Of a DNA stretch of 64,000 nt, positions 53,144-56,196 are shown piece by piece (within the stretch, counting starts at the first letter, position 1; each line of letters opens with the position of its first letter). Made by a program: the position numbers and the translations under genes. Source of the DNA: Stutzerimonas azotifigens (GTDB lineage: Bacteria > Pseudomonadota > Gammaproteobacteria > Pseudomonadales > Pseudomonadaceae); assembly GCF_013522725.1 (NCBI RefSeq), contig NZ_JAAMRF010000009.1:1-64000 (forward strand), given 5' to 3'. The notes beneath the pieces were generated by a model. It was given only the letters and a program-made list of their open reading frames with translations. It had not been told where the DNA came from and made no database searches.

Positions 53144-54010
53144 TCAGCGTGTCTGGTCGCTGTGCGTCATGGCCGTGTAGAACAGCCAGGACACCAGCAG
53201 GATGATGAGGAAATAGATCAGCGAGAACGCCGCCGCCGGCCCGAGATCGAACTGCCCGACCGCCATCTTGGTCAGCGTCTGGCTGAGGAAGGTGGTCGCG
53301 TTGCCAGGCCCGCCGCCGGTGAGCACGAAGGGCTCGGTGTAGATCATGAAGCTGTCCATGAAGCGCAGCATCACGGCGATCAGCAGCACGCTCTTGAGCT
53401 TGGGCAGCTGGATGTGGCGAAACACCGCCCAGGCCGAAGCGCGATCGATACGCGCCGCCTGGTAATACACGTCCGGGATCGCGCGAAGCCCCGAATAGCA
53501 AAGCAGCGCCACCAGCGAGGTCCAGTGCCAGACGTCCATCACCAGCACCGTCACCCAGGCATCACGGGTGTTGGAAGCATAGTTGTAACTGATCCCCAGC
53601 GCGTTCAGCGCATAGCCGAGCAGGCCGATGTCGGCACGGCCGAAAATTTGCCAGATGGTCCCCACCACGTTCCACGGAATGAGCAAGGGAATGGCCATCA
53701 CGATCAGGCACAACGAGGCCCAGCGCCCGCGGGTCGGCATGGTCAGCGCGACGGCGATGCCCAGCGGAATCTGGATCAGCAGCACGCAGCCGGAAAAGAT
53801 GAACTGGCGCAGCAGCGAGTCGTGCAGACGCGGATCGCGCAGCACCTGGCGGTACCAGTCCGCACCGACCAGAAAGCGCGTCGAGGAATCGAAAATATCC
53901 TGCACCGAATAATTGACCACCGTCATCATCGGCAGGATGGCGCTGAAGGCCACCAGTGCGAACACCGGTAGCACCAGCCACCAAGCGCGGTTGTTGGGCG
54001 TCCGGTTCAT
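53144..54010 (-). CDS. glpP: ABC importer permease, glycerol-type (GlpP-like)
   Basis: The protein has 288 residues with six transmembrane helices, MalF-type core (NNRAWWLVLPVFALVAFSAI at the N-terminus). The EAA motif is YYQAARIDRASAWAVFRHIQ near residue 195. ATG 54008-54010 overlaps the stop of the preceding ATPase (ATGA), so the two are translationally coupled. Confidence 0.85.
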   Translation of the reverse strand: MNRTPNNRAWWLVLPVFALVAFSAILPMMTVVNYSVQDIFDSSTRFLVGADWYRQVLRDPRLHDSLLRQFIFSGCVLLIQIPLGIAVALTMPTRGRWASLCLIVMAIPLLIPWNVVGTIWQIFGRADIGLLGYALNALGISYNYASNTRDAWVTVLVMDVWHWTSLVALLCYSGLRAIPDVYYQAARIDRASAWAVFRHIQLPKLKSVLLIAVMLRFMDSFMIYTEPFVLTGGGPGNATTFLSQTLTKMAVGQFDLGPAAAFSLIYFLIILLVSWLFYTAMTHSDQTR

Positions 54011-55104
54011 GACTGCGCCTCCACCAGCAGGTCATCGGCATAGAGCATCAGCCACTGCGCCGGGAAGGACACCCAAACGACGTCGCGCGCCAGGGTCTGC
54101 TCCTCCGGCAGACGGGCCTTGAGCAGATGCCCCTGCAGGCGAAAACTCAGAATCTTGTAGGTGCCCAGGTCTTCGAGACGCACCGCCTCGGCCTGCATCG
54201 CGCCGGCGCAAGGCTCGTCGGCGACATGGACGAACTCTGGGCGAATACCGATCTGCAGGCGCTTGCCTACAAGCGCCGGAAGCTGCCGACGCAGCCCCTC
54301 GGGCAGCGGCAGATGCTGTTCACCGAAGCCGACGCCGCCCTGCTCGGCCTTGACCTCGATCAGATTCATCCCAGGGCTGCCGACGAAAAAACCGACGAAG
54401 GTGTGGCGAGGCCGCTCGAACAGCTCGCGCGGCGTGCCGAACTGGACGATCTGCCCGCCGTGCATCACCGCGATCTTGTCGGCGAACGTCGAGGCCTCCA
54501 GCTGATCGTGGGTGACGTAGATCATGGTGATGTTGAACTGCTCGTGGATCTGCTTGAGCTTGCGCCGCAGCTTCCACTTCAGGTGCGGGTCTATCACCGT
54601 CAGCGGTTCGTCGAAGAGAATTGCGGAAACGTCGTCACGCACGAGGCCGCGCCCCATCGAGACTTTTTGCTTCTCATCCGCCGTCAGGTTTCGCGCCTTC
54701 CTGCTCAGCACCCGCTGCAGGTCGAGCACCTCGGCGACCTCGTTCACCTTGCTCGTCACCCGCGTTTCGGCCAGGCCCTGATTGCGCAGCGGGAACGCCA
54801 GGTTGTCGAACACCGTCATGGTGTCGTACACCACCGGAAACTGGAAAACCTGGGCGATGTTGCGCTGCTCCGGCGTCAGCCGGTTCACCTCGCGGGAGTC
54901 GAATAGCACCTTGCCTTCGGACGGACTGAGCAATCCGGAGATGATGTTGAGCAAGGTCGACTTGCCGCAGCCGGACGGCCCCAGCAGGGCGTAGGCGCCG
55001 CCCTGCTCCCAGACATGGTCCATCTCGCGGATCGCATAGTCCTGCGGCCCGACCGGGCGTTCGGCGTAGCTGTGGGCCAGGTTCTGCAAACGGATTTCAG
55101 CCAT
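54007..55104 (-). CDS. glpT: ABC importer ATPase with degenerate signature motif (GlpT-like)
   Basis: The protein has 365 residues, MalK-like, with a C-terminal TOBE-type regulatory domain. Walker A GPSGCGKST is at 42-50, the Q-loop in VFQFPVVYD near 88, Walker B AILFDE at 161-166 and the switch His199 in YVTHDQLEA. The ABC signature, normally LSGGQ, is LTADEKQ at 140-146. It pairs with the GlpS-like ATPase, which has the opposite defect. Note that this gene is unrelated to the glycerol-3-phosphate antiporter also named glpT. Confidence 0.85.
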   Translation of the reverse strand: MAEIRLQNLAHSYAERPVGPQDYAIREMDHVWEQGGAYALLGPSGCGKSTLLNIISGLLSPSEGKVLFDSREVNRLTPEQRNIAQVFQFPVVYDTMTVFDNLAFPLRNQGLAETRVTSKVNEVAEVLDLQRVLSRKARNLTADEKQKVSMGRGLVRDDVSAILFDEPLTVIDPHLKWKLRRKLKQIHEQFNITMIYVTHDQLEASTFADKIAVMHGGQIVQFGTPRELFERPRHTFVGFFVGSPGMNLIEVKAEQGGVGFGEQHLPLPEGLRRQLPALVGKRLQIGIRPEFVHVADEPCAGAMQAEAVRLEDLGTYKILSFRLQGHLLKARLPEEQTLARDVVWVSFPAQWLMLYADDLLVEAQS

Positions 55105-55113
55105 GGCCAGCTC

Positions 55114-56196
55114 CTAGGCACGCCGCGCCGGCGCCTGGGCCAGGCGGCCCTGCGCATCGAACACGAACAGCTTGTGGGTGGGGATGTAGACGCGGATCGG
55201 AGAGTCCACCGGGTAGTCGTGCACGCCCTGCAGATGCAGGACCAGGCCGAAGTGGTCGTTGCGCACGTGGAGGAAGGTTTCCGAGCCGCTGATTTCGGCC
55301 AGCTCGACGCTACCCGACACCTCAAGATCATCGTCGTTCGAAGGCACCAGGCCGATGTGGCTCGGCCTTACGCCGAAGCGGTAATCGCCCTCGCCGAGGG
55401 TTCGCAGGTCGGCATTCAGGGGAAAATGCAGGCAATCCATGAAGCTCACCTCGGCGGCGGCGATGCGTCCGGCCAACAGGTTGATCGGCGGCTCGGAGAA
55501 CAGCTCGGCCGCGAGCATCTGGTTGGGCCGGTGGTAGACGTCGGCGGTCGGCCCGCTCTGCAGCACCCGCCCTTCGTGCAGGACGGTGGCGGTTCCACCC
55601 AATGCCAGCGCCTCGTTGGGCTCAGTGGTGGCGTATACCGCGATGCTGCGGCGGGTACGGAACAGCTCGCGCATCTCCTGGCGCAGCTCCTCGCGCAGCT
55701 TGTAGTCGAGGTTGACCAGAGGCTCGTCGAATAGAACCAGCTCGGCATCCTTGACCAGCGCACGTGCCATCGCCGTACGCTGCTGCTGCCCGCCGGAGAG
55801 CTCCAGCGGATGCCGCTCCAGATACGCCTCGATGTGCAGCATCTCGGCGGTTTCACGGACCCTGCGCTCGACTTCGGACCGGCCTACGCCAGCCTGGCGC
55901 AACGGCGAGGCGATGTTCTCGAAGACACTCAAGGTCGGGTAGTTGATGAACTGCTGATAGACCATCGACACGTTGCGCTTGCGCACCGGCACGCCGGTCA
56001 CGTCCACGCCATTGATCAGGATTCGCCCGCGGGTCGGCTTGTCCAGCCCGGCCATCAGGCGCATCAGCGAGGTCTTGCCGGACAGCGTGCGGCCAATCAG
56101 CACGTTGAAGGATCCGGGCTCGAAATGCAGGCTCGCCTCATCGATGTGAAGCTGGCCGTCCACCGCTCTGGAGACATGATCCAGGGTGAGTGACAT
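55114..56196 (-). CDS. glpS: ABC importer ATPase lacking the switch histidine (GlpS-like)
   Basis: The protein has 360 residues, MalK-like, and is first in the operon. Walker A is the less usual GRTLSGKT (35-42), the Q-loop is in VYQQFINYP near 81, the signature LSGGQQQR (133-140) is intact and Walker B is LVLFDE (153-158). At the H-loop it has YATTEP, so Thr191 replaces the switch histidine. The C-terminal TOBE-like domain is present (GVRPSHIGLVPSNDDDLEVS). It is expected to form a heterodimer with the GlpT-like ATPase. A sigma-54 promoter precedes it. Confidence 0.85.
   Translation of the reverse strand: MSLTLDHVSRAVDGQLHIDEASLHFEPGSFNVLIGRTLSGKTSLMRLMAGLDKPTRGRILINGVDVTGVPVRKRNVSMVYQQFINYPTLSVFENIASPLRQAGVGRSEVERRVRETAEMLHIEAYLERHPLELSGGQQQRTAMARALVKDAELVLFDEPLVNLDYKLREELRQEMRELFRTRRSIAVYATTEPNEALALGGTATVLHEGRVLQSGPTADVYHRPNQMLAAELFSEPPINLLAGRIAAAEVSFMDCLHFPLNADLRTLGEGDYRFGVRPSHIGLVPSNDDDLEVSGSVELAEISGSETFLHVRNDHFGLVLHLQGVHDYPVDSPIRVYIPTHKLFVFDAQGRLAQAPARRA

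What the first reader, a model, noticed from the sequence alone, without database searches (positions are those of the whole stretch)
54007..56196. ABC importer ATPases with complementary defects: one working and one degenerate ATP site
The GlpS-like ATPase has an intact LSGGQ signature but Thr191 in place of the switch histidine. The GlpT-like ATPase has an intact switch histidine (His199) but LTADEKQ in place of LSGGQ. In a head-to-tail heterodimer the GlpT Walker/His half would face the GlpS signature, forming one full site, while the other site would lack both elements. Such asymmetry is well described in ABC exporters but is rarely discussed for importers.
Basis: partly seen in the sequence, partly recalled or inferred. 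Interest (0 to 1): 0.7.

Follow-up and report, generated by a model that had tools for sequence, protein, structure and literature searches.

The report
Glycerol importer with one ATP site
A bacterial glycerol-type import pump carries two different ATPase subunits whose defects are matched, so that together they could build one proper ATP-burning site and one broken one, a lopsided design that recurs in the relatives examined.

Summary
GlpS (window 55114-56196, minus) has LSGGQ but Thr191 at the switch-His position. GlpT (54007-55104, minus) has His199 but LTADEKQ at the signature.

The pairing is not random loss. Of 398 genomes of the window's phylum, the same 85 carry GlpS, GlpT and the DUF2160 protein GlpU, in an S,T,P,Q,U,V locus in 85 of 85. 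In those 85, GlpS LSGGQ and GlpT His are 85 of 85, and GlpS His and GlpT Gly-Gly 0 of 85. The 44 MalK-type control ATPases fetched keep His and Gly-Gly, 44 of 44.

The asymmetry is wider than reported. GlpS also lost the A-loop aromatic and usually a Walker A Gly; GlpT also has a changed D-loop. These defects all fall in the same composite site. Codons vary synonymously while most of these residues stay fixed.

Best reading: an obligate GlpS/GlpT heterodimer in a CUT1-type importer with one consensus and one degenerate site. It is a new variant of a known kind; degenerate sites in exporters and in fused RbsA/NupO importers are in print. Heterodimer, one ATP per cycle, content of the degenerate site, and subunit docking are inferred, not tested.

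The parts
55114..56196 (-). GlpS-type ATPase (360 aa): canonical LSGGQ and D-loop (NLD), no switch His, no A-loop aromatic, atypical Walker A
54007..55104 (-). GlpT-type ATPase (365 aa): canonical A-loop, Walker A, switch His; degenerate signature LTADEKQ and D-loop VIDP; AlphaFold model mean pLDDT 89.5
56161..56163 (-). GlpS Val12 at the A-loop aromatic position (GlpT has Tyr13)
   Evidence: Val in 67 and Phe in 1 of 74 GlpS, Tyr in 74 of 74 GlpT, Phe/Tyr in 43 of 44 controls
56071..56094 (-). GlpS Walker A GRTLSGKT; Leu38 where 44 of 44 controls have Gly
   Evidence: Gly lost in 69 of 74 GlpS, kept in 5
55786..55800 (-). GlpS signature LSGGQ (faces GlpT Walker half in the inferred heterodimer)
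55723..55728 (-). GlpS Walker B Asp157-Glu158 (catalytic Glu retained)
   Evidence: 74 of 74
55624..55626 (-). GlpS Thr191 in place of the switch histidine
54955..54981 (-). GlpT Walker A GPSGCGKST
54667..54687 (-). GlpT degenerate signature LTADEKQ; Asp143 takes the place of the second Gly
54586..54597 (-). GlpT D-loop VIDP in place of NLD-type
   Evidence: Val170, Ile171, Pro173 in 74 of 74
54607..54612 (-). GlpT Walker B Asp165-Glu166 (presumed catalytic Glu of the consensus site)
   Evidence: 74 of 74
54508..54510 (-). GlpT His199, switch histidine
53144..54010 (-). GlpP-type permease; EAA-loop Glu position is Gln184 (53461-53459)
   Evidence: Gln in 85 of 85
52333..53136 (-). GlpQ-type permease; EAA-loop Glu164 kept (52647-52645)
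   Evidence: Glu in 85 of 85
52051..52323 (-). GlpU-type small membrane protein, DUF2160 (PF09928)
50270..52009 (-). GlpV-type solute-binding protein (SBP_bac_8)
56231..56246 (-). sigma-54-like -24/-12 element TGGCATGGTTATCGCT ahead of glpS
56303..56359 (-). two palindromes of TGAACA/TGTTCA half-sites (56359-56344 and 56316-56303), candidate activator sites
56186..58273 (+). divergent GAF/sigma-54-activation/Fis regulator (AcoR-like by domain order, name recalled); true start probably near 56420

Best explanation
GlpS and GlpT are the two nucleotide-binding subunits of one CUT1/MalK-type (type I) importer of the glycerol GlpSTPQUV kind and work as an obligate head-to-tail heterodimer. Site A (GlpT A-loop Tyr13, Walker A, Walker B Glu166 and His199, closed by the GlpS LSGGQ and D-loop) is a full consensus site and does the ATP hydrolysis that resets the transporter. 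Site B (GlpS Walker half without A-loop aromatic, with an altered P-loop and Thr191 for His, facing the GlpT LTADEKQ and VIDP D-loop) is degenerate: it keeps the Walker A Lys and Walker B Asp-Glu but should not close properly on ATP or hydrolyse it at a useful rate, and serves as a hinge or binding-only half. A homodimer of either protein would have two defective sites. Shown: the motifs, their co-occurrence and conservation, the operon. Inferred: heterodimer, site roles, one ATP hydrolysed per cycle, docking of GlpT on GlpP and GlpS on GlpQ.
For: The same 85 of 398 genomes have a GlpT-profile match (85 at 497 bits or more, next best 314), a GlpS-profile match (85 at 498 or more, next 313) and a full-length DUF2160 protein; all six genes are in 85 of 85 such loci. 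In 74 pairs under 80% identity the deviating nucleotide-site motifs lie in one composite site, while Walker A Lys, Walker B Asp and Glu, and Q-loop Gln are kept in both subunits 74 of 74. 44 of 44 MalK-type controls are canonical at His and Gly-Gly, including both ATPases of a different two-ATPase importer in two genomes (L132, L134). Degenerate residues are fixed while their codons vary: Asp143 GAC 44/GAT 29, Thr191 four Thr codons, Val170 four codons. S and T are each one clade, 100/100, in a tree of 92 rows, so the defects most simply sit on two old stems. The GlpT fold is predicted with good confidence, with a helix from residue 142. If 5 of 10 motif slots had been lost at random, all 5 in one site has probability 0.008 (0.026 with 16 slots), with slots chosen after seeing the data.
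Against: No structure, ATPase measurement or genetics for this family was found or run. The catalytic Glu of the degenerate site is kept (74 of 74), unlike many degenerate exporter sites (recalled), so residual hydrolysis is possible. The heterodimer could not be modelled (the tool takes single chains; the GlpS model job was never accepted). Co-occurrence in one operon does not prove physical pairing; the S-T distance correlation of 0.89 may be shared phylogeny alone. 5 of 74 GlpS keep the Walker A Gly and 1 of 74 an A-loop aromatic, so these two defects are not universal. In some searches only the five best candidates per genome were scored. The 44 controls are high-scoring picks from 733 matches in six genomes, not a random sample.
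Confidence: 0.82

Rival explanations
1. Heterodimer with two working sites: Thr/Ser191 and the LTADxKQ motif are alternative solutions, and both sites hydrolyse ATP, perhaps at different rates.
For: Walker A Lys and Walker B Asp-Glu are kept in GlpS 74 of 74, and the new motifs are themselves conserved, GlpT Lys145 74 of 74 and GlpS Glu192 73 of 74.
Against: Site B lacks the switch His and the signature Gly-Gly in 74 of 74 and the A-loop aromatic in 73 of 74, while site A has kept all of them in 74 of 74.
Confidence: 0.12
2. GlpS and GlpT are subfunctionalised and each works as a homodimer, or pairs with another ATPase.
For: Each matches the MalK-type model NF008653 over nearly its whole length, though below its cut-off.
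Against: Each homodimer would have two defective sites; no genome of 398 had one without the other at the thresholds used.
Confidence: 0.03
3. Relaxed constraint: the second site simply decays because one site is enough.
For: Loss of a site's motifs is the expected outcome when one site suffices; Walker A position 38 and the A-loop position of GlpS do vary.
Against: The degenerate signature core, D-loop and Thr191-Glu192 are nearly invariant across 74 pairs with synonymous codon change, and Walker B Glu is not lost; this looks like a kept design.
Confidence: 0.08

Closest known systems
Glycerol ABC importer GlpSTPQUV of Rhizobium leguminosarum VF39 and the Cupriavidus metallidurans Rmet_2229-2234 system
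   Same: Same gene set: two ATPases, two permeases, small membrane protein, binding protein; PMC7912956 reports 63% identity between Rmet_2229 and GlpV (passages read). glpD-, glpK- or DeoR-type genes near 57 of 85 loci.
   Different: No glpD-, glpK- or DeoR-type neighbour was clustered at the window locus; it has a divergent sigma-54 activator. No passage seen here describes the ATP-site asymmetry.
MalK/UgpC (CUT1) ATPases, for example E. coli MalK
   Same: Homology over nearly the full length, best NCBIfam hit NF008653 UgpC for both; best solved relatives are MalK-type chains 2d62 and 1v43.
   Different: MalK is a homodimer (PMC7756565, passages) and so has two equal sites; here two subunits with complementary motifs.
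ABC exporters with a degenerate site (TM287/288, TmrAB, CFTR, MRP1)
   Same: One consensus and one degenerate composite site in an asymmetric dimer (review PMC7756269, passages read).
   Different: Importer, separate ATPase subunits, catalytic Glu kept in the degenerate site, Asp at the second signature Gly, no A-loop aromatic on the degenerate side. The resemblance to CFTR G551D is recalled.
Fused importer ATPases RbsA and NupO
   Same: Importers with one degenerate site, noted in PMC11466899 (passages read).
   Different: Type II importers (that paper's term) with both domains in one chain and the second Walker A Lys lost; here Lys is kept and the domains are separate proteins.
Two-ATPase importer next to a Dak1 kinase gene (L151) and its relative L152
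   Same: Two adjacent MalK-type ATPases; they group with GlpT in the tree at 94/89, below the mark for firm support.
   Different: Both ATPases keep Gly-Gly and His, so having two ATPase genes does not by itself bring degeneration.

Membership tests
GlpSTPQUV glycerol ABC importer | Six genes for two ATPases, two permeases, DUF2160 protein and binding protein in one locus | tested here: met
   window; 85 of 85 loci with full-length DUF2160:
GlpSTPQUV glycerol ABC importer | Link to glycerol catabolism genes | tested here: inconclusive
   glpD-, FGGY- or DeoR-type neighbours in 57 of 85 loci, not at the window; a glycerol kinase match over its cut-off lies on another contig of the window's genome
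GlpSTPQUV glycerol ABC importer | Glycerol is the transported substrate | not testable with these tools
   needs uptake or binding assay
ABC transporter with one degenerate ATP site | Deviating motifs of two different NBDs fall on one composite site | tested here: met
   the composite geometry itself is recalled for MalK-type dimers
ABC transporter with one degenerate ATP site | Catalytic Walker B Glu lost or replaced at the degenerate site (common in exporters, recalled) | tested here: not met
   GlpS Glu158 kept in 74 of 74; filed as works like, not as a member of that exporter group
ABC transporter with one degenerate ATP site | No or slow hydrolysis and long nucleotide retention at the degenerate site | not testable with these tools
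   needs biochemistry
MalK/CUT1 ATPases | Sequence homology over ATPase and C-terminal regulatory domain | tested here: met
   NF008653 over residues 3-351 (GlpS) and 1-357 (GlpT), but below its curated cut-off of 432 bits (261 and 290); OB_MalK found in GlpT, not in GlpS
MalK/CUT1 ATPases | Two consensus sites built from like subunits | tested here: not met
   complementary motif loss; assembly itself not tested

The most novel reading that the evidence does not exclude
GlpSTPQUV is a natural single-stroke importer: site B never sandwiches ATP (an Asp sits where the second signature Gly should be, as in the CFTR G551D change, and the A-loop aromatic is gone), so one ATP at the GlpT-Walker/GlpS-signature site alone drives a MalFGK-type cycle. 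The subunits are keyed to their permeases: GlpT (Asn53) docks on GlpP, whose EAA Glu position is Gln in 85 of 85, and GlpS (Arg/Lys46) docks on GlpQ, whose EAA Glu is kept in 85 of 85, so the power stroke always enters from one defined side.
Probability: 0.35. Interest if true: 0.75.

Novelty: new variant of a known kind. Interest (0 to 1): 0.6.

Why it matters
Whether a type I importer needs one or two hydrolysis-competent ATP sites is an old question that in MalFGK2 and the histidine permease was approached with engineered mutants (recalled). This family offers a natural importer in which the answer seems built into the sequence. It occurs in 85 of 398 genomes sampled from the window's phylum, and three loci carry titles of sulfate-reducer-type MAGs outside it (L244, L246, L249). 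The two ATPases are separate genes that can be mutated one at a time. It also suggests that degenerate-site asymmetry arose within the MalK-type lineage, apart from exporters.

Tried and rejected
Considered and rejected: sequencing error or pseudogene (both frames open, motifs conserved in 85 loci, GlpT model well folded); shifted signature motif (the region aligns without gaps in the rows shown); general looseness of MalK-type ATPases (0 of 44 controls); two-ATPase importers always degenerate (L151/L152 pairs are canonical).

Led nowhere or weak: S and T as sisters could be neither shown nor rejected (best tree separates them, AU p 0.35). GlpT Asn53 as a docking key is weakened because 7 of 44 controls also have Asn there; the Arg47-EAA Glu contact of MalK is recalled and was not found in passages read. 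Six second DUF2160 hits (L090-L095) are partial matches; L090, L091, L092 and L095 show one canonical MalK-type ATPase each, L093 and L094 none above the threshold in the stretch fetched. The 2012 R. leguminosarum glycerol paper is not held and is cited only through PMC7912956. The GlpS model and the fold search were never accepted.

Rows dropped: of 91 loci fetched around DUF2160 hits (window included), 6 (L090-L095) lack the six-gene set and were not counted among the 85. For the 44 controls the copies in L151/L152 were removed, as they equal L134/L132. 165 pairs were reduced to 74 at 80% identity, 47 of them from the first set. The tree used 22 of the 74 plus the window pair, 44 controls and two further ATPases. 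Of 80 named loci, 79 show all six genes and one only S, T and P. In one search some motif lists were cut; one search gives the complete counts.
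Full report
What is there. On the minus strand of the window lie six genes in the order glpS-glpT-glpP-glpQ-glpU-glpV (56196 down to 50270): two ABC ATPases, two permeases, a DUF2160 small membrane protein and a solute-binding protein. The nearest named relative of GlpT shown is from Stutzerimonas nosocomialis, 95% identical, so the window's phylum is taken to be Pseudomonadota. Both ATPases match the MalK/UgpC model NF008653 over nearly their whole length, below its curated cut-off, and their nearest solved relatives by sequence are MalK-type proteins. 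GlpQ's best solved relative is SugB (115 bits) and GlpV's only hit is a trehalose/maltose-binding protein at E 0.001; GlpP and GlpU were not searched against solved structures.

The observation. GlpS has LSGGQ and Thr191 where the switch histidine belongs; GlpT has His199 and LTADEKQ where LSGGQ belongs. The coordinates and residue numbers in the finding are right.

Do the defects go together? DUF2160 (PF09928) was used as a marker that does not depend on the ATPase motifs: 85 of 398 genomes of the phylum have it at full length. The 85 loci each carry S, T, P, Q, U and V. Profile searches of the same 398 genomes gave two clearly separated groups: 85 genomes with a GlpT match of at least 497 bits against 314 for the next, and 85 with a GlpS match of at least 498 against 313 (five candidates scored per genome, list sorted and cut below these scores). 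The three sets of 85 genomes are identical. No orphan GlpS or GlpT was seen at these thresholds. In the 85 loci GlpS has LSGGQ in 85 and no His in 85; GlpT has His in 85 and no Gly-Gly in 85. Eighty named loci, whose titles reach Vibrio, Alphaproteobacteria and sulfate-reducer-type MAGs, gave 80 of 80 for the same statements. That second set is the best 80 of 590 found with GlpT's own conserved peptides and shares some genomes with the first.

A fuller anatomy. I reduced 165 pairs to 74 under 80% identity and compared them with 44 MalK-type ATPases picked by score from 733 matches in six of these genomes. GlpS: A-loop aromatic replaced in 73 of 74 (Val in 67), one Walker A Gly lost in 69 of 74, His replaced by Thr 69 or Ser 5; its signature LSGGQ and D-loop Asn-Leu-Asp are 74 of 74. 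GlpT: A-loop Tyr, the three Walker A glycines checked, and His are 74 of 74; signature Gly-Gly replaced by Ala 69/Pro 5 and Asp 73/Ala 1; D-loop Val-Ile-Asp-Pro 74 of 74. Walker A Lys, Walker B Asp and Glu, and Q-loop Gln are kept in both, 74 of 74. In the controls His and Gly-Gly are 44 of 44 and the A-loop aromatic 43 of 44. In a head-to-tail dimer the A-loop, Walker A, Walker B and His of one subunit meet the signature and D-loop of the other (recalled for MalK-type dimers). These defects therefore fall in the GlpS-Walker/GlpT-signature site and none of them in the GlpT-Walker/GlpS-signature site. A simple count gives 0.008 for all five lost slots of ten falling in one site, 0.026 with sixteen slots; the slots were chosen after looking.

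Kept, not decaying. At the degenerate positions of GlpT and at GlpS 191-192 the amino acid is nearly fixed while codons differ: Asp143 GAC 44/GAT 29, Ala142 four Ala codons, Val170 four codons, Pro173 four codons, Thr191 four Thr codons plus Ser in 5. 116 of 365 GlpT columns and 83 of 360 GlpS columns are at least 95% conserved. Walker A position 38 and the A-loop position of GlpS are less constrained.

History. S and T are each one clade with 100/100 support among 92 rows; the best tree does not make them sisters, but uniting them is not rejected (p-AU 0.35). GlpT groups, at 94/89 and so without firm support, with the two ATPases of another importer (L132/L134, seen in full as L152/L151); in L151 this importer lies near a Dak1 kinase gene. 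Those pairs keep Gly-Gly and His in both subunits, so two ATPase genes without degeneration exist close by.

Docking inference. GlpP has Gln at the EAA-loop Glu position in 85 of 85, GlpQ keeps Glu in 85 of 85. At the position of MalK Arg47 (recalled), GlpS has Arg 158/Lys 6/Gln 1 and GlpT has Asn 164/Ser 1 of 165. If the MalK Arg47-EAA Glu contact (recalled) holds, GlpS docks on GlpQ and GlpT on GlpP. Seven of 44 controls also have Asn there, so this is a lead only.

Mechanism. Most likely the GlpT-Walker/GlpS-signature site binds and hydrolyses ATP and the other site does not. Whether site B holds ATP as in degenerate exporters, or stays empty or with ADP because Asp143 replaces the second signature Gly (compare CFTR G551D, recalled), cannot be told from sequence. 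The GlpT model is well folded (mean pLDDT 89.5), with a helix at 142-154, so the altered signature still begins a helix. GlpS was not modelled.

What is known. Degenerate sites are reviewed for exporters (PMC7756269, passages). For importers, a degenerate site in fused RbsA and NupO is noted in PMC11466899 (passages). E. coli DppDF, another two-ATPase importer, was seen with ATPgammaS on both subunits (PMC12136057, passages). For GlpSTPQUV I saw operon-level descriptions (PMC7912956 and PMC11223650, passages); PMC11505543 and PMC4597393 appeared in a search listing only. The ten literature searches listed no title on ATP-site asymmetry in GlpS/GlpT; they cover an open-licence library only, and long lists were cut.

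Substrate. glpD-type neighbours occur in 50, FGGY-kinase in 25 and DeoR-type regulators in 24 of 85 loci, at least one in 57 (similarity clusters in stretches of about 9-19 kb, so lower bounds; one representative of each was checked by Pfam). The window locus and 12 others have a divergent GAF/sigma-54 activator, and 1 of these 13 also has a glpD- or kinase-type neighbour. Glycerol is therefore likely but not shown for the window.

Verdict. Observation confirmed, interpretation supported and extended. New variant of a known kind.

Noticed in passing
window 56196-56420 and the same interval in 12 relatives: Between glpS and the divergent activator: TGAACA/TGTTCA half-sites, three or more within 300 bases in 13 of 13 loci with this activator and any at all in 4 of 72 other loci; a sigma-54-like -24/-12 element with 9-11 of 12 matches in 11 of 13, against 8 of 72 others scoring 9 or more. 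Suggests sigma-54 control by this activator in place of a DeoR-type repressor.
   Followed up: partly
window 53459-53461 (GlpP Gln184) and 52645-52647 (GlpQ Glu164): The EAA coupling loop Glu position is Gln in GlpP in 85 of 85 and Glu in GlpQ in 85 of 85: the asymmetry may extend to the permeases.
   Followed up: partly
L151:93-10491 and L152: Importer with two canonical MalK-type ATPases; in L151 it stands near a Dak1 dihydroxyacetone kinase and a PEP-utilising enzyme gene; possibly a triose importer.
   Followed up: partly
L091:6352-14237: A second, shorter DUF2160 protein (about 42 bits) in a different importer locus with one canonical MalK-type ATPase, an FGGY kinase and an alcohol dehydrogenase; similar partial hits L090, L092-L095 were not annotated further.
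   Followed up: partly
window 48756-49078: Three tRNA genes (Leu, His, Arg) on the minus strand beside an ORF at 49347-50201 that reads like folD (name recalled).
   Followed up: no
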